From: Nephrocerus scutellatus
Lineage: Eukaryota; Arthropoda; Insecta; Diptera; Pipunculidae
Direction: 5' to 3'
Assembly: GCA_947095585.1 (NCBI GenBank)
Contig: OX352761.1
Coordinates: 106,606,390 to 106,670,389, forward strand
Length of the DNA: 64,000 nucleotides
The position numbers and the translations under genes were made by a program. The notes under the pieces are model-generated. The model was not told the origin of the DNA and did no database searches. It was given only the letters and a program-made list of their open reading frames with translations. Position 1 is the first letter of the stretch, and every line of letters starts with the position of its first letter. Positions 2,131-45,621 of the stretch are shown here, piece after piece.

Positions 2131-2217
2131 TGGTTGCCTGGTTTGGATAATTTGTTGTAACTATGGCTGTAATTCAATAAAATAAAAAAATTTATTTAGT
2201 GGCTTTATGTAATGTTT

Positions 2218-2244
2218 ACATTTTTATTGCAATTTCCTACGCAG
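2218..2244 (+). promoter_or_regulatory. bcd: bcd splice acceptor
   Basis: A T-rich tract ends in CAG at 2242-2244. The next bases complete one codon and continue DSMVMKRPRRTR, matching the Drosophila protein just before the homeodomain. This fixes the exon boundary and argues against the upstream in-frame ATG. Confidence 0.75.
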
Positions 2245-3314
2245 ATGACTCGATGGTAATGAAACGACCTCGCCGCACACGCACAGTTTTCAAGACCTCA
2301 CAAATAGACAAATTGGAAGCGTATTATCTCGAGAACCGATATTTGTCGTCGGCCCGACTCGCAGAATTATCAGCGGAATTGTCGCTGGGTACAGCACAGG
2401 TAAAAATTTGGTTTAAAAATCGACGTCGTCGTGAGAAGATACAATCGGATCAACAAAAGGACCCTCGGTTTACATACGATGATGCTCTACAGTCGCCGAG
2501 GTCCAGAAAAAAGGATTCATATGAAACTGATGGAGGAGCGTCGTTAGCACATGGTTTAAGTGAAACTCCTGCAACACCGATGGCTTCGCCAACACATATC
2601 ACATCCAATTACGATTCCTTCTGTGATGGTCAATCTATTAATGCGTACTACGCTACATACAAGTCCAGCAATCCTCATTCGATTCATCATCCGCCCCATC
2701 ATTACCCAGAGCCAACATCAAAGATTGCTGCTTCCGTTGCTCCAACATACTTCGGATCAACTGGCTCACAATCTCAAAATCGGCATCAGCAGCAGCAGCA
2801 TCAGCAACTCCATCAAAATCATCAACAAGTATCACAATATCAACATTACGATTACATCAAATGCTCAATGGCCAAGCAAGAGCAGATTATGAATTACAAC
2901 AATTCCTATAACATGATAATGCCAAACAGACAAACCAAAGCAATGACAGCGGTGGAAAGTGGGACAAGTAATACCAAAATGGACACAACATATCATCACT
3001 CATCGGCACCGAATTCACAAGCCTATGAACCACTGACACCGTCAACAGACGAAAGTCCACCTCAGAGCGGCGCATCAGAAGATATGGACGACGATACCAA
3101 AACGCTGCTTGTTCTGAGTAGCTCTACCGGATCCGGCGAAAGCGATATGGGTAGCGTTATTGGCCCTGAAGATTACAGTGTTTTCCAGAAATTCAAACCG
3201 ACAAACAGCTCCGACTCGAACAACTACCAATGCTCCATGGATACGATAATGCAAGCGTATAACAGTCATCGTAATTCATCCGGCAATATGCCATTCGCCT
3301 ATTGCTTCAACTGA
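2245..3314 (+). CDS. bcd: Bicoid, 3'-terminal coding exon (partial gene)
   Basis: This is the anterior morphogen bicoid, a homeodomain transcription factor that also binds RNA. The homeodomain is at 2268-2447. It has the diagnostic lysine at position 50 (KIWFK) and arginine at 54 (NRRRR), followed by KIQSDQ as in Drosophila Bcd. Further on are His- and Gln-rich stretches (about 2680-2870), a YEPLTPSTDESP block, an acidic EDMDDDTK block, and a C-terminus ending MDTIMQAYN...FAYCFN that closely matches the Drosophila C-terminus. The exon starts after a splice acceptor (pyrimidine-rich tract then CAG at 2242-2244). An in-frame ATG at 2199 is intronic and not a plausible start. The 355 residues run without interruption to the stop. 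Exons encoding the N-terminal region lie upstream, outside the window or unrecognised. Confidence 0.93.
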
Positions 3315-10389: not shown

Positions 10390-10880
10390 ACATTCTTAAA
10401 ACCCCACACCACAATATGCTGCCGACACCAAGCATAGACGAAGTTAGCAGAGCGATAAATCGGCTTAAAAAAATCAGATAGTATCCCACGGCAAGAGGAA
10501 GAATCCTCTATAAGTCCATTCTGCGTCTGCGTTATTGCCTAGCAGACGACATCGACATCTTTGGTAAAAACCAAAAGGCTGCACAGAGCTTTCATCCAGA
10601 TCCTACTGGTGGCACGAAATCTGGGGCTCCACATATGAGTAGAAAATGCGAGTAGAAGAAGTAGAAGATCCAATATTGGTCCCTCAATTAAAACAGTGGA
10701 GTGCGAATTTGAAGTAGTGCAACCCTTTAACTATTTCGGGTCAACTGTAGCAGCCGATAACAACATGGGACCAGAAATACGCGCACGGTTGCTCAAAGCC
10801 AACAAAGACTACTTTAGTCTGTCAAGACTCTTAATTCCAGGAACTTAACCATAACATCCAAACTGCTGGTGTATAAGACC
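10390..10880 (+). mobile_element. RTE-like reverse transcriptase fragment
   Basis: The plus strand reads LADDIDIF at 10538-10561 (YADD-box region), then pieces equivalent to the RT thumb. Frameshifted. It ends exactly where the inverted-repeat arm with zen-like copy A begins (about 10880). Confidence 0.6.
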
Positions 10881-11666
10881 TTTTAAGCTAACTCAGTTTT
10901 TATATAGATATGGCGAGCTTAGAAGCTCTGCTTTACTATGTTGGATATGTATATTATCACTTCGTACAGTGTCACGTTCTAGGGGGAAAATTTATTTAAA
11001 ATTTCATTCTTCAATCAGATATGGGAAAATAATAAAAAGAAATATGACTACGGAAACTAATAATTATTACTGGTAATGATCACATTTAAAGAGAGCTTCT
11101 TGTTTTGGTGGCAAAGACAAAACATCGACTATTTTCCATCGACTGTTCTCTTGCGAGATTTTGCGATTGTATCTGCGGCAACTTACAGACCATTTATGTT
11201 TCTATCTACTAAATATATTCAAAACAAATCTCTGCTCTTCTTGATTGCATGCAAGTTTGGCTAAAAGAACCGATCTGAACTTTTGAAAAAGCAAAACTTT
11301 TCTTAAGTTTCGTACAACTTTTTATAAACTTTTGAAAAATTGAAAAACAGAATAATTGTTGATTTTTAATTCAGTGAAAATTTATTTAATTAAAAATTTA
11401 ACGTTAAATGTGTGATTTCTATTAAAAAAAATGCAAAATTTACTGTAAGCCTAGTAACAATTGACTCGAATAAATATAAGAATTAAATACATTCTTAAAA
11501 CTATTACGAAAATATAAAGATATTACAGTTCTCTGTTATACTACTTTCTAGTAACTTACAATACTTATACTTAAGCTAATTGCAATTACAAAAAATTGCG
11601 TTCAATCTTAACGTTCTGAATTGGACGAACATTGAAGAGATAAGTGATTTGTGATCTAAGCTCGAT

Positions 11667-12326
11667 TTAAGAAATCTTTATGCTTTTTTCTCTGTTGATG
11701 GTCGAATTGAGTTCTTCCTGAATATACTCTAAGGCCAAATCGAGATCCCATTCCACCGAATAATCGGAGCACCCGGAATCGTCCGAACTCAACAAATCGG
11801 CCAGAATCTGATTTATTTCTGCTGGCTTGTTTTTCGTTCGCATTTCTCTTTTTTCCTTCATCCTGCGATTCTGAATCCAAACTTTTACTTGCGTTTCGGA
11901 AAGGTTCAAGCGCTGGGCGATTTCAATGCGACGAGGGCGACTAACGTACTTGTTCCTCTTGAACTCCTCTTCTAATCGCAGAACTTGTGAACTTGTAAAG
12001 GAGGTGCGGGTTCTCTTGACCTTTTTTGGCTCTTGATATTCGACAGAGCTCTCCGGTGATGAGGATAACGGCATCGGCGAATCGGGTAGTTCGCCATAGG
12101 AGAATACTGGTATTAACGTCTGTTCATCAAACCTTACATTCAAAACGGCCCCTTGGTGCTGCTGATAAATAATCTAAAGTTTTAAAAAAGAATATTAATT
12201 GACTAAAGGTTAAGGTGAATATTGTCAGATAAAAATACTTACGTTTTCAAAATTGGGCAACACTGCGTTGTTACTTTCTTCACAATATAAATGTGGATTA
12301 TCGACGCGAACTTGATAGTAATTCAT
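11667..12326 (-). CDS. zen-like homeodomain protein, copy A
   Basis: A Hox3-derived (zen family) homeodomain transcription factor of 196 residues. Exon 1 is 12326-12243 (28 codons from ATG), intron 12242-12174 (69 nt, GTAAGT...TTTAG, phase 0), exon 2 12173-11667. The N-terminal part has a [13 protein letters not shown] block. The homeodomain is residues 80-139, with R5, W48, Q50, N51 and R53 present but isoleucine instead of phenylalanine at position 49 (KVWIQNRR). The C-terminus is acidic ([18 protein letters not shown]). It is intact with no stop or frameshift. It differs from copy B by two residues (V instead of A in exon 1, E instead of D before the homeodomain) and from copy C by two. 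TATA box at 12438-12443; polyadenylation signal (reverse) at 11391-11396. The family is sure; orthology to Drosophila zen2 is possible but not shown. Confidence 0.9.
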
Positions 12327-12405
12327 TTTGTTTTTTTTTTGTTTGTAATTTTTTTAGTAAAAATAGCGGATCTCAAAGATGTGTCAACGATAGAACTCAA
12401 GTTGC

Positions 12406-12443
12406 AAATGATGCTGTCATCCATTTGGTAGTCAGAATTTATA
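12406..12443 (-). promoter_or_regulatory. core promoter of zen-like copy A
   Basis: TATAAA (minus strand, 12443-12438) followed by an Inr-like TCATTT whose A at 12409 lies 34 nt downstream. The same arrangement is found upstream of copies B and C. The predicted 5'UTR is about 83 nt. Confidence 0.6.
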
Positions 12444-12675
12444 GTCCAAGCCGCGGTTAAAAGTTGACACTCTGAGTAAGCGTCAGCGTTGATCCCTTTA
12501 ACGAGTACACAAAATCGATCTATTTTTTATGGTAGGTACAGAAAATGCACCCATAAGTCATAAAAGTTACGCCGATCGATGAAGATATCTTTGAGGTACA
12601 TTTTGGTTAGCCGAGATTACCCGATCAGGTGTCCAGACCTTCGGAATATCTGAACGAGAGAGAAAGAGAGGCATA

Positions 12676-12682
12676 CAGGTAA
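12676..12682 (+). promoter_or_regulatory. Zelda/TAGteam-like heptamer CAGGTAA upstream of copy A
   Basis: CAGGTAA is a strong Zelda-type site in Drosophila. It is present only in copy A. At the matching place copies B and C have GACAACG or GACAGCG. Copy A lacks the CAGGTAG site found in B and C, which an 18-bp deletion at about 12605 has removed. Confidence 0.45.
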
Positions 12683-13169
12683 CGCGGTATTGTAAAATAT
12701 TTTAAAGCGTACAGTGATACTATTTGCATCTCCTTCTATTACAACTCTTTACTCTCTCAACACTACAAAAGCACGACCATTGCGCAACGTTAGCACTTAA
12801 ATTTTACATTGAAAATATTTATTATTATTAGTAACTATAAACTATAAAATATGCCGCTACATCTAAGAATTTTAGGTACAATTAAGTTGTTCCCAAAATA
12901 ACGACTGACATATTTGAATCAAGTAGTACCAAGTTTTGTTGGATCTGTTCTGCTAATCTAATATGCATTCGTATATAGAAATATATTTACTATCAGTTTA
13001 AAGTTATTAACTTTTAAAAATACCAGATTTTGAGGTCGTAAAACTGATCTCCTAAAACTCCGGGTCTGAAATTTGTTAGTGTCATGCCGTATTTTTATTA
13101 ACGTCAATTTTTATCACATTTACAATCTTCATTCATAATATTTACAGATATGATTTGTCTTAGAGAAAA

Positions 13170-13600
13170 CACATATCGTATACAAGGTGTCCCCTTATTC
13201 ATCACCAATAATTTGGGAAATGATTCTTGGGTATATTCTAGGAAAAAGTCGTGCTGCAATAAGGGTCTATATCTCTAATATTGACATCATTCATTGGGGA
13301 TTGAAAAAAATGCTTACTTTGGTGGACTCTGACCCGTATTAAAGAAATTAGTTAATATTAATGGAAGAAACTTCGTTTATTACTTTGTTTTTAAAAAAAA
13401 TATTAGCCGTTGTAGCTGCCTTTTAAATAAAGTTGATATCTTATTTGATTCTACAGATACCCAATTTTAATGCCTGTTCCATTTTTCTTGCCCATGCTAA
13501 TTTTTGACTTTGAGGTCAATTTTCTCCAGAAAATGCGTAATAAACGTAACTTTTTACTTTTTTTTCCATATAAACGTAGCAATTTGTTTTTTTTTTTGCT
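13170..13600. repeat. dispersed repeat with CAGGGTGTCC-like end
   Basis: It starts AAGGTGTCCCCTTATTCATC and continues with GGGAAATGATTCTTGGGTATATTCTA. Similar copies lie at 39.99-40.35 kb and 52.81-53.37 kb. The homologous place in the C arm (about 27720-27800) lacks it, so it probably inserted after the inverted duplication or was lost there. The end resembles a Tc1/mariner-type terminal repeat, but no transposase is inside. Confidence 0.6.
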
Positions 13601-13671
13601 TTATGCTCAAAGGCTATGAATAAAAAATAATTTCGTGTGGTTTAGATAAAAACAGGTGCTCTAAGGGTCCT

Positions 13672-13699
13672 CCTTTTTTTTAAATTCTCTATATTAACT
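13672..13699 (+). mobile_element. terminal remnant of a CTCTA-family element
   Basis: Only TAAATTCTCTATATTAAC remains. At the matching point of the C arm (27071-27618) a complete element is present, so the left arm has lost most of it, together with about 130 bp of adjacent LINE. Confidence 0.65.
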
Positions 13700-14430
13700 A
13701 TATTAACAAATGCGGAAACACAGAATCAGGCAATTCATTCCACATCACTATTGTGCGGCTAAAGAAGGCATCTCGGAATTGGTTGGTATGTCCGGAGATA
13801 GGCCTTATGGTAGACCCGTGGGCTCGAGTTGTGGTACGGGTATTGTGATTGGGTTGGAGGATGTGCGGGATGAATCTGGATATTTCCTTTGAACACCACT
13901 TTTAGAAAAAGCGATAAAACAGTGACAATCAGGAAACATTCCTATGACTTTCAAGCGATTCGATTATTTTCGCGATATTTACGTCACCAATAAGTTTTAT
14001 CGCGCGGTTCTGAGTTCTGTCTAGTATGTGGCAATGTGGCACCTGCCAAGACAATACAGTTGTATTCAAGATTTAGGCGAATATAAACCTTTTAAATAGT
14101 AGTCAGGTCTGAGGGAGTGAAGTACATCTTGCACCGTTTAAGGAAAGAAAAGTGTGAACAATAAGGGACATAGTTTACGTAAACACCAGTCTTGGTTTCG
14201 TAGAAGTTGGACAATTTCTCGTTGACGTAAGCTGCTTGAATACGACCCTTGAAGTATAGCTTTTGATTAGTATTCGATATAATCTTTTGGAAAAGTCTAG
14301 CAGAACCATATAACATGATGTTTATTCATTTCTGCATGAAGGCAGAAAGGCAGAAGGCACTAGATCCACAGCGTAATGTTTTAATTATGCTTTAGTCTAA
14401 AATAAGATTGATGAGGTGATAAAAGGCCGA
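13700..14430 (-). mobile_element. LINE fragments (CR1/Jockey-like), minus strand
   Basis: 13700-14100 is the reverse complement of the ORF2 3' end seen at 26.5-26.95 kb. 14090-14430 reads, on minus, an RT segment with AAYVNEKLSNFYETKTGVYVN; the homologous piece in the C arm is at 24.9-25.29 kb. Both pieces were therefore already in place before the arms were duplicated. Dead. Confidence 0.75.
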
Positions 14431-15850
14431 ACTCATTGAGGTAAATGGTAATTTTTTGAATAACTGTCTTTTTGAAAAGTTTCGATCAAAATTGGTAATA
14501 AAGAAGTTGAACAGTACACCTACGTTACTAGTTATTTTTTACTAAACTCTTTGAAATGTGTGAAGAGTATGTGTTAAATTGTTAATTAACATATAAGTTT
14601 TGTGTGGCAACTACTATCTGTTTTAGACATTTTAAATGCATACCGTCTAAGCCTAATTTGATTGATTATAAAAATAAGAAATTTTATTCAAAACATTGCC
14701 AATGATGACCTTCGTAGCTGTTGGTCGTATTTTAATAAATCCACTGATCGTGTTATCATCTAACTCTAACTCTAAATCAGTTGGTGCTATGGTTCATCAG
14801 CTAAAACCTCAAAAGAAATAATCAGGAGGTTTTAAACTACACAGAGTACAGATCCTAATTAAGAATTCTATTATACAGACAAATGAATGAACATAAATCT
14901 GGAAATTCCCATAGAAAAATATATAAATAACAAAAGTTAAACTCCGATTAGGGGTGCAGTAAAATTCGGAACTAGCATTTGCAAAATAAAATCTTTTAAC
15001 TAACCATTCACCGTTCGCAGTTTGCGGATTACCTATTTTACCTATTGCAGATGCAATATAGGTATAAATCCAAAATGTGGTGCTCGCCTTCTAAAAATCA
15101 CTTTACTGCTGTGTACTTTAAGCTGGTTTGTGTTCCAAGTGCAGGGATAGGTTTATTGTATACGCAGAATAGGTCTGATCATTACTTATGAACTTTTATG
15201 ATCCCTAATTGCATACGCAAAATTACGATTTAACTTTTATGATCCTTAAAAAAACCCCAAAACGTAATCCGCAAAATTGCGCATAGTTCGCAAGTTGCAC
15301 AACAAACTCGACTTTTATTGTTGTATGCTAACGGGGTAAAAATATCATTACCCATTCGATAATCCAGGTAGAAGTTTGTCCTAAGATTAAGAAAAGATTA
15401 CCCAAAATTTTCACACTAATCCCATCAACGATTTTTATACCAGCCTCCGAAAAAATCTACCAGAGCGCAATAGTCCTTGAAATGAGTCATTTTATGACGG
15501 TTCGAGGATCAAGTACTTGAGGTCCGCCACAATAACCGAATGTCAATGGATTTAATGTTGTTTTTGTAGTTTTTAGTTATAAATGACTGGAAAATTTTCA
15601 TAATAAAGTAACTTGTATACTTATTTTAAAGTTAGCCGAATGGGAATTGCTTCCGAAGTAATGCTACCAATAAACATTCTATTTACGTTGAAATGCATAT
15701 CAATATTAGTAATTGAAAAAGTCAAGTCAATTACCTATATAATCTCTCTGCAAACTTTCAATTGTAAGCGTATTGAGTCCTACACTTTAACACCAAGTAC
15801 CACAGTACACCTTTGTTTTACATCCGATCGTGAATGGACTCTTAATAAGA
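14431..15850. other. non-coding part of the left arm
   Basis: No gene. The sequence is the inverted homologue of 23.04-24.9 kb. It includes a dispersed repeat (about 15140-15360, phrase GTAATCCGCAAAATTG) with a third copy at about 36.05-36.17 kb. Confidence 0.6.
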
Positions 15851-15894
15851 GTGTAGTAGTCTCGAAGCCCCACATAAATGTATTATGTTATAAA

Positions 15895-16255
15895 ATAGTT
15901 CAGGCTAACGATAAGGGGTTCGCATCTTTATAACACTCGGCTATATGGAAAAGGAGTGGCAAATAGGAGATGTCTATGAGATTGTGCCTTGAATGCCTGC
16001 GGATCATAGTAATGTGGAAAGACAGAGCTTGGCAGAGCATTCCACATACGTGGTGTACGGCTGAAGAACGAATCTCTGAACTTAACTGTACGTGCAAAGA
16101 TCGGCTCGATGGTGAATTGATGAGCATTTAGAGCATCACGAGTATTACGGTTGGCATGCTAGCTATTTCTCTTGAGAACCGTTGGTGGAAGAAGAGTGAC
16201 AAACAGGAAACGTTCCTGCGGTCTTCAAGCGTTCTTTATGGCTTTTCGCACAGGT
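15895..16255 (-). mobile_element. CR1/Jockey-like LINE 3' fragment
   Basis: On the minus strand it reads RDSFFSRTPRMWNALPSSVF, the standard C-terminal end of this LINE group, then a tail. It lies just outside the arm boundary. Confidence 0.7.
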
Positions 16256-17029
16256 CAGCTCTATTCAGGTTTATGCATTTTACATAGTTTGGAATTGCAA
16301 ATGCGAGCTTAAGAATTCAGAAATTTCAGAAACTTTTCTTATACGTATGGGCGCTAACTCTCATACGAAGATGTGTATTCTTCATCTAGCGTGACAATGA
16401 GTGCATTTGGAAAGGTAAATTTCAGACACTCGGAATAAAACAGAATGCTGAAAAGAGTCTAGGATATTATTTTTAATTTATTCCCCTTTTTTTACATCTC
16501 AGAAACGACATTGGAACTATTCTATCATTCTATCTATAGCGGTGAAATAAAAATATAACACCTTGCGAAATAGACCGTCAGACCACATAAGTCCTTGAGT
16601 GGTATTTATGCAGTACGCCAATTAATAACAAGTTTTTCATAAATTCCATTCTAAGCGTTTTTACAGGTTTTCCAGTCTTTCTAGTTAGAACAAAGGTACG
16701 TAGCGTGGCAAGCCGCTGGACTTGCGAGAACCTCAATTATCGCTTCATTACGCTATTTAAATACAACAAACCTCGGGTGTTACTATAACAAAACTTTTCC
16801 TGGAACTGGAGTTTTGAAAGTGCGGTTCTCATCTGGTAAATTTTCGCATCTTAAAAAGTTTAAAACTGTAACCTGATTGTAAAGATGTACCGAATGTAAA
16901 CGCGTTGTACAAAAGTGGTCCTTCAAATCTTGGTAGTATTTGAACCAAATTTTAGTCGGTATTCTGTGACTAACTTGAGGATTTCAAAGTTAAAATATAT
17001 AAACGAAAAGATGTAAGGAATATTTCCTC
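16256..17029. other. unassigned sequence between arms A and B
   Basis: No coding, RNA or repeat signal that I can support. Confidence 0.4.
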
Positions 17030-17175
17030 AAGCCAAAGATGGAAGGATAGCGTAGACCAGGACGCCTAGAGTTTAGGGATGCCAAACTGGATGACATCGA
17101 CTCGAAATCAGGACCGGTGGAGAGATTTTTTGATGGAGCCAGGATCGGACCGCGGTTGTAGAGCCAAATTTGATG
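17030..17175 (+). mobile_element. RTE-like 3' tail fragment
   Basis: This short piece matches the tail at about 8060-8120 (GTAGACCAGGACGCCTAGAG and what follows). It lies immediately before the copy B arm. Confidence 0.55.
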
Positions 17176-17480
17176 ATGAACGCATATGTTCTACTCTAAC
17201 TCTTCAGTAAATAATAACTTTTAGTTAAAATATTCTAAGTAAAATGGCAAATGTTATTATAAGTATTATATATATATATTAGACAGTCAACTATTGCTTT
17301 GGTAGGTATTATAGTGTGTATATAGAAAAATATTTGTATTAGAAAGGGATGTAAATAGCAAACTCTGTATCAGTGGTTTTGTTTGATGTCATGCTTTTAC
17401 AAAACTGGAACGCGTTGTCTTTCTATCTCTCTCTCGTTCGGATATTTAAAAAGTCTGGACACCTGATCGGGTAAGCTCGG

Positions 17481-17487
17481 CTACCTG
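17481..17487 (-). promoter_or_regulatory. TAGteam/Zelda site upstream of copy B
   Basis: CTACCTG on plus is CAGGTAG on minus, the perfect TAGteam heptamer, about 205-210 nt upstream of the predicted start. It is conserved in copy C (28250-28256) but deleted in copy A. Confidence 0.55.
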
Positions 17488-17657
17488 ACTGTACCAAGTG
17501 AGCTAAAATTGACCTCAAAAATATATTCGTCGGTCGGCGTAACTTTATGACTTCATGCATGCGTATTTGTGCCTACAATAAAAAAATTGATTGAACTCAT
17601 CAAAAGGATTAACGTTGACGCTCACTCAGAGTGTCAACTTTTAACCACAGCTTGGAT

Positions 17658-17697
17658 TATAAATTCTGACTACCAAAGGGATGACAGCATCATTTGC
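17658..17697 (+). promoter_or_regulatory. core promoter of zen-like copy B
   Basis: TATAAA at 17658-17663 and an Inr-like TCATTT with its A at 17692, 34 nt apart. The 5'UTR would be about 69 nt to the ATG at 17761. Confidence 0.6.
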
Positions 17698-17760
17698 GAT
17701 TTGAGTTCTATCGTTGACACATCTTTGAGATTCCGCTATTTTTACTAAATTAAAAAAAAA

Positions 17761-18421
17761 ATGAATTACTATCAAGTTCGCGCCGATAATCCACATTTAT
17801 ATTGCGAAGAAAGTAACAACGCAGTGTTGCCCAATTTTGAAAACGTAAGTATTTTTATCTGACAATATTCACCTTAACCTTTAGTCACTTAATATTTCTT
17901 TTTTAAAACTTTAGATTATTTATCAGCAGCACCAAGGGGCCGTTTTGAATGTAAGGTTTGATGAACAGACGTTAATACCAGTATTCTCCTATGGCGAACT
18001 ACCCGATTCGCCGATGCCGTTATCCTCATCACCGGAGAGCTCTGTCGAATATCAAGACCCGAAAAAGGTCAAGAGAACCCGCACCTCCTTTACAAGTTCA
18101 CAAGTTCTGCGATTAGAAGAGGAGTTCAAGAGGAACAAGTACGTTAGTCGCCCTCGTCGCATTGAAATCGCCCAGCGCTTGAACCTTTCCGAAACGCAAG
18201 TAAAAGTTTGGATTCAGAATCGCAGGATGAAGGAAAAAAGAGAAATGCGAACGAAAAACAAGCCAGCAGAAATAAATCAGATTCTGGCCGATTTGTTGAG
18301 CTCGGACGACTCCGGGTGCTCCGATTATTCGGTGGAATGGGATCTCGATTTGGCCTTAGAGTATATTCAGGAAGAACTCAATTCGACCATCAACAGAGAA
18401 AAAAGCATAAAGATTTCTTAA
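17761..18421 (+). CDS. zen-like homeodomain protein, copy B
   Basis: 196 residues, intact. Exon 1 is 17761-17844 (28 codons), intron 17845-17914 (70 nt, GTAAGT...TTTAG, phase 0), exon 2 17915-18421. Homeodomain at 18068-18247. It has Q50 and N51, and isoleucine at position 49 as in copies A and C. It differs from copy A at two residues (A for V in exon 1, D for E before the homeodomain) and from copy C at four. Polyadenylation signal AATAAA at 18692-18697. It should act as a nuclear DNA-binding regulator; in flies zen-family genes act in dorsal/extraembryonic tissue. Transcription start and early expression are inferred from the shared promoter layout. Confidence 0.9.
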
Positions 18422-19199
18422 ATCGAGCTTAGATCACAAAGCACTTATCTCTTCAATGTTCGTCCAATTCAGAACGTTAAGATTGAACGCAATTTTTTGT
18501 AATTGCAATTAGCTTAAGTATAAGTATTGTAAGTTACTAGAAAGTAGTATAACAGAGAACTGTAATATCTTTATATTTTCGTAATAGTTTTAAGAATGTA
18601 TTTAATTCTTATATTTATTCGAATCAATTGTTACTATGTTTACAGTAAATTTTCAATAGAAATCACACATTTAACGTTAAATATTTAATTAAATAAATTT
18701 TCCCTGAATTAAAAAGCAACAATTATTCTATTTTTCAATTTTTCAAAAGTTTATAAAAAGTTGTACGAAACTTAAGAAAAGTTTTGCTATTTCAAAAGTT
18801 CAGATCGGTTCTTTTAGCCAAACTTGCATGCAATTAAGATGTGCAGAGATTTGTTTTGAATATATTTTTATCTCGCAAGAGAACAGTCGATGGAAAATAG
18901 TCGATGTTTTGTCTTTGCCACCAAAACAAGAAGCTCTCTTTAAATGTGATCATTACCAGTAATAATTATTAGTTTCCGTAGTCATATTTCTTTTTATTAT
19001 TTTCCCATATCTGATTGAAGAATGAAATTTTAAATAAATGTTCCCCCTACAACGTGACACTGTACGAAGTGATAATATACATATCCAACATAGTAAAGCA
19101 GAGCTTCTAAGCTCGCCATATCTATACAAAAACTGAGTTAGCTTAAAAGGATTTTAATTGCATCAATAACCCCTTTTTACACTTTTTCTACGAAAACTA

Positions 19200-20600
19200 C
19201 CCCTAGGATTCAGTGTTGATTTCTGAATCGAAATTAATGATTTAAGATAAGATCTCTCTCTTTGCGATGATAGGTTTTAATATTTTTAGTAAGAGTCTTT
19301 CAAACAGTTTCGAAATAATCATTAGTAGTGACATGACCGATATGATGTTGTTACAATCATAACGACTTGAGCCACCTTCCATGATTGTGGTTGGTATTTT
19401 AGTCTGAATGTTGCACTGATCAAATAAGTTATTTTAATTATTCCCTTTCTTGGAAGTTCTCTGAGTATTTGTCCAGTGATAAGGTCAAAGCCAGGTGTTT
19501 TTTGGAGCAATGTTAGTTTTTATTTTTTCGTTTAATTTCAGCCAACGTAACTAGTGGAATTACTATCCTTTCTTTCTCAATAATATCTGGTAGTATTTCA
19601 ATACTGTTCACTAAGTTCGTTCGGAATATTCCTTCTTGATGCAAACCTTGATGCTTTTTGATAATTGTTCTTGCCCAACTGCCATCCGAATTTTTAATGG
19701 GGGGCACTTCCACAATTGATCTTTTCAGCTTCCCGCTTGCTTTCCAAAGCGAATATTCAGTAGGTCATTGTGCCAACATCATAATTACCTCTAATCAGTG
19801 AAACTCCTTGGGCTATTTTATTGTTTTGGTAATAATTGTCAATGGTGGTCAGCCATCAGCAAAATAGGGGGAATAACACGTAAGATTCATCAGAATTGTA
19901 CGTTGCCTCAACTACGAGTATCTCTGACTGGTGGAAATACGATGGACGGGAAATGGTGTCTTACAAAAATTAGAATATGAAATATATTGCACCTGACATG
20001 TAAGACATGATGTGCTCGGGGTGGGCTTTCTAGTTATTGTATAATTTTTCAGTTGTTTGATCTCTTCACTTAGTTGAAAAGTGAGATAACTTAACCTGGT
20101 TTTAGTTTGCGGGGCCCTGGTATAATGTCATTATTTCCTCGCTTTTCTATTTTATTTACTAAGCTCTGGTATTTCTCTAGGGTAGTTATTACCTTTAAGT
20201 TTTCTTTTTATTTCAGGAGTTTTTGACAGGCAGATTTCTAAATGTCGCTGATAAATTTGTCCATTTCAAAGTCCAACTGATCTTTGGTTTGTAATAGTAC
20301 CGTTAGTTGAATATTGTTTTTTCTAGTGTTATCCTGCAGCGTTTACAGTCTGTTTTTTTTATTGACCCAAGTAGGATTGGGGAGTTTTGAAATAATATTT
20401 CCACCAAGCGTTAATATAATCGGGAAATGATCTGAGCCTAACTCCAAGCTGCCTTATATATGCATGTAATTACTAGAGATATTTCTTATTATGTAAAAGT
20501 CCATCAAACCAGGAATTTTCTTTGGATCTGTATAGGACAGTAAGTTGGTTTGCCTATTGGTATAAATTCACATTTCACTTATTTGAATAGCAATAGTAGT
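19200..20600 (-). mobile_element. Jockey-like LINE remnant
   Basis: The minus strand reads, from high to low coordinates, an endonuclease C-terminal motif (LGSDHFPIILTLGG, near 20390-20440), then linker pieces (19713-19513), then RT (KTPGFDLITGQILRELPRKG, 19510-19440). The order is correct for ORF2. Several frameshifts. It abuts the end of the copy B arm. Confidence 0.75.
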
Positions 20601-20639
20601 TCTCTGATATTCAAATAAGTGAAGCTAGCTCCACGCTAC

Positions 20640-21845
20640 CATATAGCGCGTTGTTGCCGCCGGTACTTGTAAGAGTCGAATTTTCTATGGGACAGATTAA
20701 CTTTCGTACTCGTCAAGTGGCTAAAGTATTGAATGATCTCAGCATTCATAAATCTGCTTGGCCTGATGGTATTCCCGCTATAGTTTTGAAGAGGTGTTCC
20801 TTAACGTTGGCATTGCCATTGCGTAGGCTTTTTCGTTTCTCTTATTCTTCTGGAGTTGTTTCAATGAATTGGAAAATAGCCTTTTTACAATCTGTTCCTA
20901 AAAGAGGCAAACCATCATCTCTTTCCTCCTACCGACCAATTGCGCTAACATCCATCCTTTCTAAGGTCATGGAAACGCTGATCAATCGTTAGCTTATGCA
21001 ATACCTTAAATCTTGTGAAATCCTTACCGACCAGCATTACGGTTTTCGTAGGCAACGTTCTACAGGTGACCTTATCTCACTGAAAAGTGGAACCAGTCTA
21101 TTCAAAAGTTCGGTGAAAGCAAAGTTGTTGCACTCGATATTTCCAAGGCATTCGACAGAGTCTGGCATCGAGCGCTTTTGTCGAAAATTAATGCCTATGG
21201 AATTAATAACGTCCTGCTCGATTGGACTAGTAACTACCTTTCTGACCGTTCAATCCACGTCGTATTGGACGGATTCAAATTCAATGTTCACCGCATAAAC
21301 GCCGGTGTTCCCAAAGGCTGGAACTTGAACAACAACGTATGTTAAGCACTTTAAATTCTGACCTTGACAGCATAACAAGGTGGGGTCTACAAATCCAATG
21401 CTGCCTTCTGTCGTCTCAATTGTCGGTATGTGCGTCAACAACAAGCTTCGTCGCAACGACTATCGCCAAGAATGTTGCGAGATGTTTAGGTTTCTTAAAA
21501 CGGTGCAAGATGAACTTCACTCCTTCAGATCTGGATACTATTTACAAGGCATATATACGCCCTTAACTTGAACACAACTGTATTGTCTGGGTAGGTGCCC
21601 CCAAGACCACATTAAATCGACTAGAGAGAATTCAGAACCGCGCGTTAAAACTTATTGGTAACGTAAATATCAATAAAATGTTCAAAAGATATATCCAGAT
21701 GTATCCCGCCTATTCTCGAACCCATCCGTAATACCGAAGCCTCCACTCGACATCTCATCTCTTCCTCTCCCTAATTTCCTAACGCCACGCTGCGCTAAGT
21801 ATTATAAGGGGCAAATCCCTTTAGCGTGTGTACATTAAAAAAATA
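20640..21845 (+). mobile_element. CR1/Jockey-like LINE, RT to 3' end
   Basis: The plus strand reads LSIHKSAWPDGIPAIVLKR and SLSSYRPIALTSILSKVME (20727-20980), then QHYGFRRQRSTGDL, and in shifted frames a DISKAFDRV block and GFLKRCKMNFTPSDLDTIYK (21497-21556). It ends with a short A-rich tail after CCTTTAGCGTGTG. Broken by several frameshifts and at least one internal stop. Siblings lie at 25.7-27.07 kb, 33.0-33.47 kb and 48.6-48.99 kb. Confidence 0.85.
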
Positions 21846-22150
21846 TTTAATGCCCCATTCCTTGAACTCAATCGCAATACTCGTGGTGCTCTAAAGCTCA
21901 TCAGTTTACCATAGAGCCCATCTTCGGACGTACAGTTAAATTCAGAGATTATCGCTCTTCAGCCGTACACCACGTATGTGAAATGCTCTCCCAAGCTCTG
22001 TCTTTCCACATTAATATGATCCACAGCCATTCAAGGCACAAGCTCATAGAAATCTGCTCTTTTCTACTTCTTTTCCTTAACGCCGTCGCTGTGGCAAGCA
22101 TATAGCCGAGCATTATAAGCGTTCGAACCGCTTTACGCAAGCGTCAAATA
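21846..22150 (+). mobile_element. second LINE 3' end fragment
   Basis: The last ~300 bp of the same LINE group repeats here (TVKFRDYRSSAVHHV-like reading, then CTCATAGAAATC and an A-rich tail), directly behind the previous copy. Confidence 0.6.
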
Positions 22151-22151
22151 T

Positions 22152-22335
22152 AAAAAAAACAACCCATAAAAATTAAAATTTTTCTTGTAAATTCTCTAAT
22201 CGGAGATACACACACACACACACACACTGCGTTCGGCTTGTGGCAAAATCATCCAGCAAATTACGCAGCCGCAGCGAACAGCGCTGCTCACAAAGCACAG
22301 AGCTCAAACTTTACCGTGATCTGATGCGAATTTAA
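22152..22335 (-). mobile_element. CTCTA-family element end, minus orientation
   Basis: It starts AACAACCCATAAAAATTAAA, then GTAAATTCTCTAATCGGAGA, a CA microsatellite, and a block ending near CCGTGATCTGATGCG. It is the inverted partner of 22843-23035, so the two form a snap-back pair about 510 bp apart. Confidence 0.75.
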
Positions 22336-22508
22336 AAAAATTTAGAAGAGAATTTAAAAACAACTCTATTGTACTTTGTAATACATTTTTTGCGTTTACA
22401 AGACGATAAGTTGGACTTTCTTAAAACATCGGTTCACATTATCGTTACCCTGGACTTACTTTTAACATAATCAACTAACGAGTGGCTTCGAAACTACTAC
22501 TTTCTTAT

Positions 22509-22539
22509 TAAATTCTCTATATTAACTTCACTTGCCCGT

Positions 22540-22570
<31 letters not shown>

Positions 22571-22951
22571 TGGCTGGCTGGCCAAATCTTGTGATCAATT
22601 TTTAACCCACTTCCTACAGCCCGATTTTATTGAAATTTTGCACACATGTATATCTCCCAAGACAACACTTCTTATTAAAATTTGAGGCCCCTCGGGCCGC
22701 GGGGTCGGGGGGCTCCCATATATTTTACAAAATTTACCCGATTTTCTTTAAATTTTGTACACCATTCTTCGATGGAAAACACTTTATGTAAAAATTTGGA
22801 GCGATTGGCCCCTTGGAGACCCCAATATACAATTTTTAAATATCGCTATATCGCATCAGATCACGGCAAAGTCTGAGCTCTGTGCTTAGTGAGCAGCGCT
22901 GTTCGCTGCCGCTGCGTAATTTGGTGGAATATTTTGCCACAAGGCGAGCAC

Positions 22952-22986
<35 letters not shown>

Positions 22987-23039
22987 CTCCGATTAGAGAA
23001 TTTACAAGAAAAATTTTAATTTTTATGGGTTGTTTTTTT
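22509..23039 (+). mobile_element. CTCTA-family non-autonomous element
   Basis: Complete-looking copy: TAAATTCTCTATATTAACTT at the left, a GGCTGGCTGG tract, internal ~120-bp subrepeats with ACACATGTGTAT-like cores, a GT microsatellite, and the right end GATTAGAGAATTTACAAG through ATGGGTTGTTTTT. No ORF of known type. It abuts the edge of the copy C arm. Confidence 0.75.
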
Positions 23040-23288
23040 AAGAGTGCGTTCACGATCGGATGTAAAACAAAGGTGTACTGTTGTACTTTGTGTTAAAGTG
23101 TAGGACTCAATACGCTAACAATAGTAAGTTTGCAGAGAGATCATATAGGTAAGTGACTTGACTCTTTCAATTACTAATATTGAAATGTATTTTACAACGT
23201 AAACTGAATGCTGTTTATTAGCAACAATACTTTGGAAGCAATTCCCATTCGGCTAACATTAAAATAAGTATACAAGTTACTTTATTAT

Positions 23289-23839
23289 AGATATTTTATA
23301 TCTATATTATAAAATAAGAATACCAGAACGAAATCAAGTTGAAAATATCATAAACAACCTTCCCCATCATGCATCTATCTGGTACACAGGGACGTGTTCA
23401 GGAGTATTCTGGCCTAGAACCACAATACGAATACCCTTAGGAAAATCACCAACCGTCTTCCAGGCTGAAACATCAGCCATAGAAGCCTGTACCATCAAAT
23501 GCATTAAAAGAAGACTTACAAGAATCAAGATCTACCCGATCTCCGACAGCCAGGCCACATTGCTAGCATTTAAAGGCCCAGCTTTCAACTCCAAAACAAC
23601 GTGGAGCTGCTACTGCCACCGAAACGAACTGGCCAAAACCAACAAGATCACAAGATTTCAATACCTCAAGGCTCGCACAATTCCATGTCAATATATCAAA
23701 CCGATCGACCTGGCAGATATGGTGGTATTCATGAAGGAACTAAGCCACCACATATTGTGGTAAATATCTGGAATGCACAATATATCTCAAGGTCGCAGTG
23801 CACAAGGCTTCTCAGCCCACCAACAATAACAATAATAAA
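23289..23839 (+). mobile_element. 5'-truncated LINE insertion with target-site duplication
   Basis: TACTTTATTAT occurs on both sides (23278-23288 and 23840-23850), and the left arm near 15600 has one copy with no insert: an exact empty site. The 551-bp insert encodes, in plus frames, RNase H pieces of Jockey type (SGVFWPRTTIRIPLGKSPT, QAETSAIEACTIKCIKRR, YPISDSQATLLALKGP) and ends in an A-rich CAATAACAATAATAAA tail. Confidence 0.88.
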
Positions 23840-23850
23840 TACTTTATTAT

Positions 23851-24900
23851 GAAAATTTTCCAGTAATTTATAACTAAAAACTACAAAAACAACATTAAAT
23901 CCATTGACATTCGGTTATTGTGGCGGACCTCAAGTACTTGATTCTCGAACCATCATAAAATGACTTATTTCAAGGACTTTTGCGCTTTTTTCGGCGGCTG
24001 GTATAAATATCGTTGATGGGATTAGTGTGAAAATGTTGGGTAATCTTTTCTTAATCTTAGGACAAACTTCTACCTGGATTATCGAATGGGTAATGATATT
24101 TTTACCCCGTTAGCATACAACAATAAAAGTCGAGTTTGTTGTGCAACTTGCGAACTATACGCAATTTTGCGGATTACGGTTAGGGATTTTAAGGATCATA
24201 AAAGTTAAATCGTAATGATTGGGCATATTTTGCATATGTAATTAAGGATAATAAAAGTACATAAGTAATGATCAGACCTATTCTGCGTATACAATAAACC
24301 TATCCCTGCAATTCACTTAGAAGACCAATCAGCTTAAAATACACAGCAATAAAGTGATTTTTAGAAGGCGAGCACCAAATTTTGGATTTATACCTATATT
24401 GCATCTGTAATATGTAAAATATGTAATCCGCTTACTGAGAAAGATGAAGTTAGTTCGAAGGTTGCATTTTGCAAATCTTAGTTCCGCATTTTACTGTACC
24501 ACTTATCGGAGTTTATCTTTTGTTATTTATATATTTTTCTATTGGAAATTCCCATATTTATGTTCATTCATTTGTATGTATAATCGAATTCTTAATTAGA
24601 ACCTGTACTCTATATAGTTTAAAACCTGCTGATTATTTCCTTTGGGGGTTTAGCTGATGAACCAGCAACAACTGATTTAGGGTTAGATTTAGATGATAAC
24701 ATAATCAGTGAATTTATTAAAATGCGGCCAGCAGCCACGAAGGTCATCATTACCCCGAAAAGTATTAATGCCATGTTTTGAATAAAATTTCTTATTTTTA
24801 TTATCAATCTAAGGTCCTGCCACACATAACTTAGTTATTAAAAACCAATTTTACATACTCTTCAAAGAGTTAAGTAAAAAGCAACTAGTAACGAAGAGTA
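23851..24900. other. non-coding part of the right arm
   Basis: Inverted homologue of about 14.5-15.6 kb, including the GTAATCCGCAAAATTG dispersed repeat. No gene. Confidence 0.6.
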
Positions 24901-25290
24901 CCTACTGTTTAATTTCCTTATTACCATTTCTATCGAAATTTTTCGAAAAGACAATTCTGCAACAAATTACCATTCACCTCAATGAGTTCGGCCTTTTATC
25001 ACCTCATCAATCTGATTTCAGATTAAAGCACAGAGTTGAACCACTGCGCCGTTGAATCAAGTGTATGACTTTCGTGCAGAAATTAATAAAAACTATATAC
25101 ATAACATCGCTGGTTCTGCTAGACTTCTCGAGAGTTTATCTCGAAAACTACTCAAAAGCTATACCTCAAGGGTCCCATCCAAGCAGTTTACCTCAACGAA
25201 ACATTTTCCAACTTCTTGAAAACAAGGCTGGTGTTTACGTAAATTATGTCTCTTTTTGTTCACACTTTTCCACAATAACATCCCTTCAGT
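24900..25290 (+). mobile_element. LINE RT fragment, plus strand
   Basis: Reads LISLLPFLSKFFEKTILQQI, then SPHQSDFRLKHRVEP, SLVLLDFSR and QLLENKAGVYVN (the usual KAGVPQGS box in degraded form). It is also present, inverted, at 14.09-14.43 kb. Confidence 0.75.
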
Positions 25291-25292
25291 GC

Positions 25293-25495
25293 TAAAAAAA
25301 AACAACCCATAAAAACACACACACACACACACACCGCGTGCTCGTATTGTGGCAAAATCATTCACCAAATTACGCAGCGGCAGCGAACAGCGCTGCTCAC
25401 AAAGCACAGAGCTCAGACTTTGCCGTGATCTGATGCGATATAGCGATATTTAAAAATTGTATATTAGGGTCCCCAAGGGGCCGATCGCTCCAATG
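25293..25495 (-). mobile_element. CTCTA-family partial element, minus orientation
   Basis: AACAACCCATAAAAA, then a CA microsatellite and the same block as 22210-22330 (GCAGCGAACAGCGCTGCTCA). Truncated. Confidence 0.65.
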
Positions 25496-25699
25496 TTCAT
25501 CTGTATTTAAGATACCATTGGATTCTTCACTCCGAATCATTGTTGACCTCAAATCGGTAGCGTGCATAGACATTATATTGAATATACAACGCAGACTATA
25601 CTTATTACGAGATATTCTATATAACAGGCGCTATATAGGTCAACGCCTGTTGAAAATAATGTCTCGGCAGGACAGTCATAGAGTCCCGAAATCCCGGGC

Positions 25700-27070
25700 T
25701 TGAGTCAATTCAATAAATTCAAGGCTATAGCATGCATACAAAACCGCTGGTCAATCGTAAGCTTATGCAATACCTTGAAACACGTAAAATCCTTAGCGAC
25801 CAGCAGTACGGTTTTCGTAGGCAACGTTCTACAGGTGACCTGATGGCTTATCTCGTTGAAAAGTGGAACCAGTCTATTCCCAGATTTGGTGAAAGCAAAG
25901 TTGTTGCACTCGATATTTCCAAGGCATTTGACAGAGTCTGTCATCAAGCTCTTTTTTCGAAAATGAATGCCTATGGAATTAATAAGGCCCTGCTCGATTG
26001 GATTAGTAACTACCTTTCTGACCGATCAACCCAGGTTGTATTGGACGGATTCAAATCCAATGTTCACCGCATAAACGCCGGTCTTCCCAAAGGCTCTGTT
26101 TTGTCTCTGACACACTTTCTGATTTAATTACTGATTTCCCATCCAGCACTTCTAATCCAATTCTTTCGCCGACGAGAGCACTCTTAGCTTTTCATGTGAT
26201 TTCACGCTTTTCTCCATGCCCCTCTTCTTCGCAAGTGGAACTTGAATAACACCGTATGTTAAGCACGTTAAATTCTGACCTTGACAGCATATCAAGGTAG
26301 GACTACATAATAGAGTTGAATTTAACGCTGTCTTCTGTCGTCCAAGTGTAATTTAAACCAACAACCTTTATCCGTGAATGGATCTTGCATCGAAGAAACT
26401 GAAAAACTCGCAATTATCGGTATGTGCTTCGTTGAAACGGCCACATATTGCCTCTGCCAAGAATACTGCGCAATGTTTAGGTTTCCTAAAACGGTGCAAC
26501 ATGTACTTTACTCCTTCAGATCTGGCTACTATTTACAAGGCAGTTGTATTCAAGTTTAGGGCGAATATCTAAACTTGAATACAACTGTATTATCTGGGCA
26601 GGTGCCCCCAAGACCACATTGCTTCTACTAGACAGAATTCAGAACCGCGCGATAAAACTTATTGGTGACGTACATATCGCGAAAACAATAGAATCGCTTG
26701 AACGTCATAGGAATGTTTCCTAATTGTCACTGTTTTATCGCTTTTTCCAAAAGCGGTGTTCAAAAGAAATATCAAGATGCATCTCGCCCATCCTCCAACC
26801 CAGTCGCAATACCCGTACCATAACTCGAACCCACCAGTAGGCATATCTTCGGACGTACTAACCATATCAGTGATTCCTTCTTTAGCCGCACTATAGAGGA
26901 ATGAATGTTGGATGAATTGCCCGATTCTGTTTTTCCGCATTTATATGATCTGCAGTCAGTTAAGACACTTGTGCATAGACATCCCATCTGTTCCTCTACC
27001 TAATTTCCTAACACCCACGCCGTTCTAAGCATTATAAGTGTGAAAATCCCTTTAGCGTGTGCTCATAATA
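25700..27070 (+). mobile_element. CR1/Jockey-like LINE, RT to 3' end
   Basis: 25732-26127 is an uninterrupted RT stretch: QQYGFRRQRSTGDLMAYLVE, KVVALDISKAFDRVCHQALF, INAGLPKGSVLS. Then come broken pieces (GFLKRCNMYFTPSDLATIYK at about 26479-26540) and the 3' end with CCTTTAGCGTGTGCTC. The 3' part (26.5-26.95 kb) is shared, inverted, with the left arm. Confidence 0.85.
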
Positions 27071-27618
27071 AAACAAAAACAACCCATAAAAATACAATTT
27101 TTCATGTAAATTCTCTAATATGAGATGGGTATGTGTTAAAATTTGAAAAAAATCAAGCTAATTTTTAAAAAATGTATATGGGCACCCCTCGGACCTCAGG
27201 GCCTCACTCCAAAAACTTTACAAAAACTGTTTTCTATCGGAGGTACACATGTGTATTAAATTTGAAGAAAATCGGGTTAATTTTTTAAAAAAAAGTTATG
27301 GTGCCCCACGAACCCCGGCCCGGGGTCTCCAAATTTTTTACAAAAAGTGTTGTCTATCGGAGGTACACATGTGTATTAAATTTGAGGAAAATCGAGTAAA
27401 ATTTTGTAAAATATTTGTATGGGAGCCCCCCCGACCCCGTGGTCAGAGGGGCCTCAAATTTTAATAGAAAGTATTGTCACCGGAAATACACATGTGTGCA
27501 AAATTTCAATAAAATCGGGCCTTGGGAAGTGGGTTAAAAATTGTTCGCAAGATACCATGACACACAAACCCAACCACAAACAAACGGGCAAGTGAAGTTA
27601 ATATAGAGAATTTAAAAA
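27071..27618 (-). mobile_element. CTCTA-family element, minus orientation
   Basis: Complete copy with ACACATGTGT cores at 27247, 27367 and 27488, giving an internal period of about 120 bp. Ends AACAACCCATAAAAA at the left and AGTTAATATAGAGAATTTAA at the right. Confidence 0.8.
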
Positions 27619-28156
27619 AGAGGACCCTTCGAGCACCTGTTATAACTGTTTAAGTACACAAAGTATCTAAAACCACACAAAATCATTTTTTATTCATAGC
27701 CTTTGATAAGAATTGGCGGGATTTGAATTACTAATACGGTCATGCCATATGAACGTACTAACAAAACTAAAAACCGAAGTTGAAGAAGATCAGTTTTACG
27801 ACCTCAAAATCTCGTATTTTGAAAAGTTAATAACTTTAAACTGATAGTAAATATATTTCTATATACGAATGCATATTAGATTAGCAGAGCAGATCCAACA
27901 AAACTTGGTACTACTTGATTCAAATATTTCAGTCGTTATTTTGGGAACAACTTAATTGTACCTGAAATTCTTAGATGTAGCGGCATATTTTATAGTTTAT
28001 AGTTACTAATAATAATAAATATTTTCAATGTAAAATTTAAGTGCTAACGTTGCGCAATGGTCGTACTTTTGTAGTGTTGAGAGAATAACGAGTTGTAATA
28101 GAAAGAGATGCAAATAACAATCTCTGTATGATGTCATGCTTTTACAAGACTGGAAC

Positions 28157-28166
28157 CCGCTGTCTT

Positions 28167-28204
<38 letters not shown>
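28157..28204. repeat. CT microsatellite in the copy C promoter
   Basis: About 45 bp of (CT)n with a few interruptions. The matching places in B and A hold a much shorter tract (CTATCTCTCTCTC and GAGAGAGAAAGAGAG). GAGAG is the core recognised by GAGA factor in flies, so the expansion may matter for promoter function (inference). Confidence 0.75.
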
Positions 28205-28208
<4 letters not shown>

Positions 28209-28249
28209 AGGTATTTCGAAGGTCTGGACACCTGATCGGGTAAGCTCGG

Positions 28250-28256
28250 CTACCTG
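28250..28256 (-). promoter_or_regulatory. TAGteam/Zelda site upstream of copy C
   Basis: CTACCTG on plus (CAGGTAG on minus), same position relative to the gene as in copy B, about 215 nt upstream of the predicted start. Confidence 0.55.
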
Positions 28257-28434
28257 ACTGTACCAACTGAGCTAAAATTGACCTCAAAGTTATCTTAATT
28301 GGTCGGCGTATGTTAATGCCTTGTTGCATGCATTTCTGTACCTACCATAAAAAAGTAGATTGATGTCGTGAACTCGTTAAAGGGATTAACGCTGACGCTC
28401 ACTCAGAGTGTCAACTTTTAACCGCGGCTTGGAC

Positions 28435-28474
28435 TATAAATTCTGACTACCAAAGGGATGACAGCATCATTTGC
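28435..28474 (+). promoter_or_regulatory. core promoter of zen-like copy C
   Basis: TATAAA at 28435-28440 and an Inr-like TCATTT with its A at 28469, 34 nt apart. Confidence 0.6.
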
Positions 28475-28543
28475 AATTTGAGTTCTATCGTTGACACATC
28501 TTTGAGATTCCGCTATTTTTACTAAATTAAAAAAAAAATCAAA

Positions 28544-29203
28544 ATGAATTACTATCAAGTTCGCGTCGATAATCCACATTTATATTGCGAAGAAAGTAAT
28601 AACGCAGTGTTGCCCAATTTTGAGAACGTAAGTATTTTTATCTGACAATATTCACCTTAACCTTTAGTCAATTAATATTCTTTTTTAAAACTTTAGATTA
28701 TTTATCAGCAGCACCAAGGGGCCGTTTTGAATGTACGGTTCGATGAAGAGACGTTAATACCAGTATTCTCCTATGGCGAACTACCCGATTCGCCGATGCC
28801 GTTATCCTCATCACCGGAGAGCTCTGTCGAATATCAAGAGCCGAAAAAGGTCAAGAGAACCCGCACCTCCTTTACAAGTTCCCAAATTCTGCGATTAGAA
28901 GAGGAGTTCAAGAGGAACAAGTACGTTAGTCGCCCTCGTCGCATTGAAATCGCCCAGCGCTTGAATCTTTCCGAAACGCAAGTAAAAGTTTGGATTCAGA
29001 ATCGCAGGATGAAGGAAAAAAGAGAAATGCGAACGAAAAACAAGCCAGCGGAAATAAATCAGATTCTGGCCGATTTGTTGAGCTCGGACGACTCCGGGTG
29101 CTCCGATTATTCGGTGGAATGGGATCTCGATTTGGCCTTAGAGTATATTCAGGAAGAACTCAATTCGACCATCAACAGAGAAAAAAGCATAAAGATTTCT
29201 TAA
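28544..29203 (+). CDS. zen-like homeodomain protein, copy C
   Basis: 196 residues, intact. Exon 1 is 28544-28627 (28 codons), intron 28628-28696 (69 nt, phase 0), exon 2 28697-29203. It has the same homeodomain as A and B (WIQN with isoleucine at 49) except isoleucine for valine after SSQ (SSQILRL), plus glutamate in DEETL where A and B have DEQTL. The 3' flank is more diverged than between A and B; AATAAA at 29515-29520 is not at the ancestral position. Coding identity therefore seems higher than flank identity, which points to purifying selection or gene conversion. Confidence 0.9.
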
Positions 29204-29640
29204 ATCGAGCTTAGATCACAAAGCACTTATCTCTTCAATGTTCGTCCAATGCAGAACGTTAAGATTGAATGCAATTTTTTATAATTGCAATTAGCTTAAG
29301 TATAAATATTGTAAGTTACTAGAAAGTAGTATAACAGATAACTGTAATATCTTTATATTTTTATAATAACATAATATACATTAGTTTTAAGAATGTATTT
29401 ATTTCTTATATTTACTCGAATCAATTGTTAATAGGTTTATAGTAAATTTTTAATTATCTGAAATGGAAATTATGTGTTTAACATTAAGTTATTAATTAAA
29501 TAATTGTCCATTGAAATAAAAAACAACAATCGTGATTATGTTTTTCAATTTATCAAAAGATTTATAAAAAGTTCTTTGAAATTTAAGAAAACTTCTGCTT
29601 TTTCAAAAGTTCAGATCAGCTATTTTACAAACAGGGAAAT

Positions 29641-45586: not shown

Positions 45587-45621
45587 GTGGACCTTTGCGT
45601 CATTGCCCAAAATTTAGATCG

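What the first reader, a model, noticed from the sequence alone, without database searches (positions are those of the whole stretch)
10880..29640. Three intact, near-identical zen-like homeobox genes in nested inverted duplications
Copies A (minus), B and C (plus) each encode 196 residues with no broken frame and differ by only 2-4 residues. Drosophila has zen plus one diverged zen2. Here the extra Hox3-type gene is amplified between bcd and zen, with promoters and 3' flanks included. The coding parts look more alike than the flanks of C, suggesting selection or gene conversion between inverted copies.
Basis: partly seen in the sequence, partly recalled or inferred. Interest (0 to 1): 0.88.

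Follow-up and report, generated by a model that had tools for sequence, protein, structure and literature searches.

The report
Three zen-like fly homeobox gene copies
In the Hox cluster of an unidentified fly, a zen-like developmental control gene exists as three nearly identical, intact copies; such copying is known in flies, but here the copies show both natural selection on the protein and sequence exchange between two of them.

Summary
Between bicoid (2181-3314 +) and a zen-type gene (45816-47967 +) lie three intact two-exon, 196-residue zen-type genes: A (12326-11667 -), B (17761-18421 +), C (28544-29203 +), differing by 2-4 residues. A and C are arms of one collinear inverted duplication (11255-16153/21869-29632); B lies inside. 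The low A-C coding divergence is mainly purifying selection: 2 non-synonymous against 11 synonymous changes; synonymous sites (11/121) are not significantly below non-coding (388/3442), although 4-fold sites (3/68, p=0.08) leave some room for conversion. A-B is different: 3' flank 2.5%, 343-bp 5' flank 15.6% divergent (p=4e-14), indicating exchange of gene body and 3' flank. A and C are each constrained; B is undetermined. All share homeodomain Ile49, against Phe in 153 of 153 others. The own genome, reached late, shows lab, pb and three more zen-type genes, two of them a recent tandem pair, 9.3 Mb away. Multiple zen copies in flies are published (up to 118), so: new member of a known kind. 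Orthology, expression and species are unresolved.

The parts
12243..12326 (-). Gene A exon 1 (28 codons)
11667..12173 (-). Gene A exon 2 with homeobox and stop
17761..17844 (+). Gene B exon 1
17915..18421 (+). Gene B exon 2 with homeobox and stop
28544..28627 (+). Gene C exon 1
28697..29203 (+). Gene C exon 2 with homeobox and stop
11255..16153 (-). A arm of the A-C inverted duplication (five collinear blocks)
21869..29632 (+). C arm of the A-C inverted duplication, longer through insertions, one with reverse-transcriptase sequence
10879..12669 (-). A side of the A-B inverted repeat; gene body and 3' flank nearly as B, 5' flank diverged
17334..19150 (+). B repeat unit (to A from 17422, to C from 17334 to 18823)
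12617..12634 (-). 18-bp promoter block of A, identical in B (17457-17474) and C (28226-28243)
17481..17487 (-). CAGGTAG (Zelda/TAGteam-type) before gene B
28250..28256 (-). CAGGTAG before gene C
12676..12682 (+). CAGGTAA before gene A (this motif is no more frequent in the window than by chance)
2181..3314 (+). bicoid open frame with homeobox (stop to stop)
45816..47967 (+). zen-type gene, 691 aa: exons 45816-45884 and 45961-47967

Best explanation
A zen-type (Hox3-derived) homeobox gene was amplified in place beside bicoid. An inverted duplication of at least 4.9 kb, with gene, promoter and upstream DNA, relates A and C; a third copy, B, lies inside it head-to-head with A (shown). A and C have each stayed intact under purifying selection (shown by their substitutions). 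Gene body and 3' flank of A and B were later made alike, most likely by gene conversion between the inverted copies, while their 5' flanks stayed apart (strongly indicated; direction not settled). The product is most likely a short Gln50 homeodomain factor expressed in the early embryo as zen is, the copies adding dose or dividing expression among promoters (inferred).
For: Intact genes and arms. A-C: six non-coding blocks 9.3-12.3% divergent, synonymous 11/121, p=0.56 against 388/3442; non-synonymous 2/467 v synonymous 11/121, p=1e-6. By lineage A 0 of 4 and C 2 of 9 non-synonymous, p 0.002 and 0.0004 against neutrality. A-B: 3' flank 18/731, 5' flank 50/320, p=4e-14; over like stretches A-C (36/333 v 47/410, p=0.82) and B-C (35/339 v 44/400, p=0.81) show no such contrast, so it is not a local rate difference. 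Site patterns shift at the ATG, p=3e-5. TATAAA and an 18-bp block are kept in all three. Drosophila zen is a Zelda/TAGteam target (PMC3197689, passages); CAGGTAG lies before B, C and the window zen-type gene.
Against: YN00 gives a lower A-C dS (0.058; NG86 0.097) and 4-fold sites 3/68 (p=0.08), so A-C conversion is not excluded; short A-C stretches vary (-600..-450 2/150, -450..-330 30/120; intron 0/69). Both private changes of B are non-synonymous, so constraint on B is unshown. No expression data. Motif evidence is post hoc, on related copies; 26% of 400-bp stretches hold some variant, CAGGTAA is at chance level. Homeodomain trees do not resolve kinship.
Confidence: 0.7

Rival explanations
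1. No gene conversion: B arose by a recent duplication of A's gene body and 3' flank that landed downstream of an older, related promoter.
For: A-B likeness runs without break from near the ATG to 10879/19150; farther upstream B hardly aligns with A or C (54-65% different from A).
Against: It needs an insertion exactly in register below a homologous 343-bp promoter (A-B 50/320, B-C 35/339), which is what conversion gives without further assumption.
Confidence: 0.2
2. Neutral amplification: the copies are redundant and have not yet decayed.
For: Three near-identical products; B's changes are 2 of 2 non-synonymous; the authors of PMC10914929 raise this for zen arrays.
Against: A and C lineages each depart from neutrality; A-C p=1e-6. 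The C count includes the branch to the A-B ancestor.
Confidence: 0.15
3. A new function: the shared Ile49 alters DNA binding and the copies do something other than zen.
For: Ile49 in all three, Phe in 153 of 153 readable homeodomains; long branch in both trees.
Against: A conservative change at a core position (recalled); Gln50, Asn51 and Met54 are kept; other zen-type genes of this fly diverge much too.
Confidence: 0.2
4. Assembly or haplotype artefact.
For: Reads were not available.
Against: 9-16% divergence of flanks with private indels; inside a 142-Mb contig.
Confidence: 0.03

Closest known systems
zen copy-number expansions of Diptera (PMC10914929; section 3.4 and passages read)
   Different: That text speaks of tandem duplication and leaves function open; here an inverted layout, constraint by copy and A-B exchange are measured
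Drosophila and calyptrate zen2 (zerknullt-related)
   Same: A second, short, fast-evolving zen-type gene; A shares 40 of 63 homeodomain-region residues with D. persimilis zen2
   Different: Drosophila zen2 neighbours pb (PMC7188484, passages); these copies lie between bcd and another zen-type gene; the D-F-[VI]-Q-N-L-L end of zen2 proteins is at most a trace here
Lepidopteran Shx genes (PMC4207634, start of abstract in listing)
   Same: Hox3-derived array beside zen
   Different: Described as divergent; here near-identical
Tribolium zen1/zen2 (PMC7536231, start of abstract in listing)
   Same: Kept zen duplicates
   Different: Two diverged paralogues with separate functions

Membership tests
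Hox3/zen family | Hox-type homeodomain | tested here: met
   PF00046 76.3 bits, cut-off 22.9
Hox3/zen family | Lies in the Hox cluster beside bcd and zen-type genes | tested here: met
   bcd and zen-type gene on either side; Dfd and Scr next on the bcd side
Hox3/zen family | Small first exon and short phase-0 intron before the homeobox exon, as in the window's zen-type gene | tested here: met
   84-bp exon, 69-70-bp intron; 69-bp exon, 76-bp intron in the zen-type gene
zen2 orthologue | Homeodomain groups with Drosophila/calyptrate zen2 | tested here: inconclusive
   Neither the zen2 grouping (p-AU 0.229) nor a zen grouping (0.468) is rejected; groupings with this fly's other zen-type genes not rejected either (0.312, 0.256, 0.328)
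zen2 orthologue | Position next to pb | tested here: not met
   pb homeobox at C1:97100056 (-), 9.5 Mb from the window; its nearest zen-type genes are at C1:97.256-97.271 Mb
Gene conversion between duplicates | One part of the repeat much more alike than the adjoining part, beyond rate differences | tested here: met
   A-B 18/731 v 50/320 with A-C and B-C as controls
Gene conversion between duplicates | The same between A and C | tested here: inconclusive
   p=0.56 on all synonymous sites, p=0.08 on 4-fold sites
zen-like function | Early dorsal/extraembryonic expression | not testable with these tools
   No expression data; motif hints only

The most novel reading that the evidence does not exclude
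In this fly the Hox3-derived genes lie on both sides of a cluster break and are being amplified at two places; beside bicoid a factor with a non-canonical homeodomain core (Ile49) is kept as several copies by selection, and conversion between inverted copies renews coding and 3' parts while promoters diverge, so that expression rather than protein is what evolves.
Probability: 0.3. Interest if true: 0.6.

Novelty: new member of a known kind. Interest (0 to 1): 0.42.

Why it matters
The published survey leaves open whether amplified zen copies in flies are functional. Here two of three copies show constraint each by itself, and the copies record which parts were exchanged. With a recent pair at a second zen-type locus of the same genome, the case lets one test whether zen amplification acts through dose, through promoter divergence, or not at all.

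Tried and rejected
Assembly artefact: judged unlikely, not tested with reads. Conversion A-C: not needed, not excluded. Kinship by homeodomain trees: unresolved (63 columns, long branches). The search with the 196-aa gene gave 4 proteins among 102 candidates, none from flies; that search needs shared 5-residue words, so it does not show that no relative exists. The bcd tree puts the window with drosophilids and calyptrates against Megaselia, Lonchoptera and Platypeza (97/97, long branch); the species was not identified. Pfam on seven other ORFs: two reverse transcriptases, five without family. Paper searches: position 49 of the homeodomain, 3 papers, none relevant by title; gene conversion among zen duplicates, 16 papers hold at least 4 of 6 terms, 12 listed, none on that subject by title or abstract start; that proves no absence. 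Structure prediction was not run: I did not expect it to judge a point change. A first zen ATG was one base off; the translation failed and was mended, so zen motif distances are one base too large.

They weakened 'A-C synonymous equals flank' (4-fold sites) and replaced 'genome search unreachable' by the result; confidence went from 0.72 to 0.70 for the first reason.
Full report
Observation. The window is part of a fly Hox cluster. A bicoid frame (2181-3314 +) matches bicoid of Drosophila, Lucilia, Musca and others; a zen-type gene of 691 aa lies at 45816-47967 (+). Between them are A (12326-11667 -), B (17761-18421 +) and C (28544-29203 +), each of 591 coding nucleotides with a 69-70-bp intron and no broken frame. 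They differ by 2 (A-B), 2 (A-C) and 4 (B-C) residues.

Anatomy. A and C are arms of one inverted duplication in five collinear blocks: 11255-13080/29632-27757, 13708-14146/26942-26482, 14147-15610/25270-23840, 15591-15848/23297-23035, 15938-16153/22085-21869. The C arm holds insertions, one with reverse-transcriptase sequence at 25717-26124. B lies between, head-to-head with A and in tandem with C. A-B likeness runs from 10879 to 12669 in A and 19150 to 17422 in B, farther on the 3' side than A-C.

A against C. Six non-coding blocks differ by 9.3-12.3% (pooled 388/3442). Synonymous sites differ by 11/121 (p=0.56), while only 2 of about 467 non-synonymous sites differ (p=1e-6). So low coding divergence is mainly purifying selection. 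Against a clean equality: 4-fold sites 3/68 (p=0.08) while 2-fold third positions 7/107 fit the non-coding transition rate 193/3442; YN00 dS is 0.058 against 0.097 by NG86; and short stretches vary widely (2/150 and 30/120). Some A-C conversion is not excluded.

A against B. The 3' flank differs by 18/731, synonymous sites by 4/121, the 343-bp 5' flank by 50/320 (p=4e-14), and farther upstream 54-65%, which is hardly alignable. Over like stretches A-C and B-C show no 5'/3' contrast (36/333 v 47/410, p=0.82; 35/339 v 44/400, p=0.81). Site patterns (AB|C, AC|B, BC|A) change from 10, 23, 22 upstream of the ATG to 18, 3, 5 downstream (p=3e-5; -340 to +860, columns with gaps and three-state sites left out). 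B shares promoter insertions with C that A lacks. Exchange of gene body and 3' flank between A and B is the simplest account. Its direction is open; the best match of B's distal 5' flank to C's (41.9 bits, 0 of 200 shuffles reach it, best shuffle 32.8; 66% over 16838-16976) may mark an older B, which would favour A to B.

Constraint by copy. Giving each coding difference to the copy that stands alone: A 0 of 4, B 2 of 2, C 2 of 9 non-synonymous. Against 79% non-synonymous sites, A and C depart from neutrality (0.002, 0.0004), B does not (0.63). The C count includes the branch to the A-B ancestor.

Protein and promoter. The homeodomain is residues 80-139 (standard numbering recalled) with Gln50, Asn51, Met54, but Ile at 49. 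Of 154 fetched proteins 153 could be read and all have Phe there; they are hits of three searches, not a random sample. TATAAA and an 18-bp block are kept in all three. CAGGTAG lies 280 and 294 bp before the ATG of B and C and 194 bp before that of the zen-type gene; A has CAGGTAA at 356. By numbers alone this is weak: CAGGTAG 7 in the window against 3.6 expected (6 of 100 shuffles reach 7), CAGGTAA 7 against 7.8. In Drosophila, Zelda and TAGteam sites drive zen (PMC3197689, passages), so early zygotic expression is a fair guess, no more.

The own genome (613 Mb, 9 contigs; the window is C1:106606390-106670389). One search lists 107 homeodomain matches. By reading their translations (names from recalled homeodomain sequence), AbdB, abdA, Ubx, Antp, ftz, Scr and Dfd lie at C1:104.89, 105.21, 105.64, 106.12, 106.27, 106.39 and 106.48 Mb, then bcd, A, B, C and the zen-type gene. 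lab (about 96.86 Mb) and pb (97.10 Mb) lie on the other side of AbdB, and near pb are three more zen-type genes at 97.256, 97.267 and 97.270 Mb. The last two are a tandem pair of 4 kb, 93.4% alike, differing by 3 of 253 residues (6 of 759 nt; flanks 70/1744 and 44/1303). This fly thus has at least seven zen-type genes besides bcd, on both sides of a 9.3-Mb break, with two separate recent amplifications. [quoted passage not shown] PMC7188484 (passages) found no break of pb-zen synteny in 80 arthropods; here pb keeps zen-type neighbours, but others stay with bcd.

Kinship. Homeodomain trees do not settle which zen-type gene is zen or zen2. PMC10914929 places the zen2 duplication in the genus Drosophila, PMC7188484 in Schizophora; the like C-termini of Drosophila and blowfly zen2 proteins (by eye) favour the latter.

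Known or new. Amplified zen genes are published for many Diptera, up to 118 copies, function left open. This is a new member of a known kind, of interest for its inverted layout, measured constraint, A-B exchange, Ile49 and the split cluster.

Limits. No reads, expression, relatives' loci or species name; protein and DNA searches of the own genome did not complete.

Noticed in passing
46324-47544: The zen-type gene's coding exon holds 4.1 in-frame copies of a 303-bp (101-residue) unit, 91% alike: a coding minisatellite in a Hox-cluster gene.
   Followed up: partly
11874-11876 (-), 18212-18214 (+), 28994-28996 (+): Homeodomain position 49 is Ile in all three copies, Phe in 153 of 153 readable fetched homeodomains.
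   Followed up: partly
L022/L023 (own genome C1:97264688-97272247): A second zen-type gene is a recent 4-kb tandem pair (93.4% alike, 3 of 253 residues differ) near pb, 9.3 Mb from the window.
   Followed up: partly
L005-L008 (own genome C1:39777313-39829364): Four tandem copies of another homeobox gene (resembles Not-type, recalled), one with a stop inside.
   Followed up: no
2244-3311: bicoid of this fly is fast-evolving (end branch 0.95), with several changes in an otherwise well-kept homeodomain.
   Followed up: partly
42227-45754: Direct repeats 42227-43021/44426-45220 (99%) and 43864-44429/45178-45754 (92%) just upstream of the zen-type gene: a recent tandem duplication.
   Followed up: no
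15365-15371 and 24070-24076: CAGGTAG in the distal A and C arms, a possible shared distal element.
   Followed up: no
25717-26124 and 31573-31938: Reverse-transcriptase fragments (RVT_1) around the duplicated genes.
   Followed up: partly
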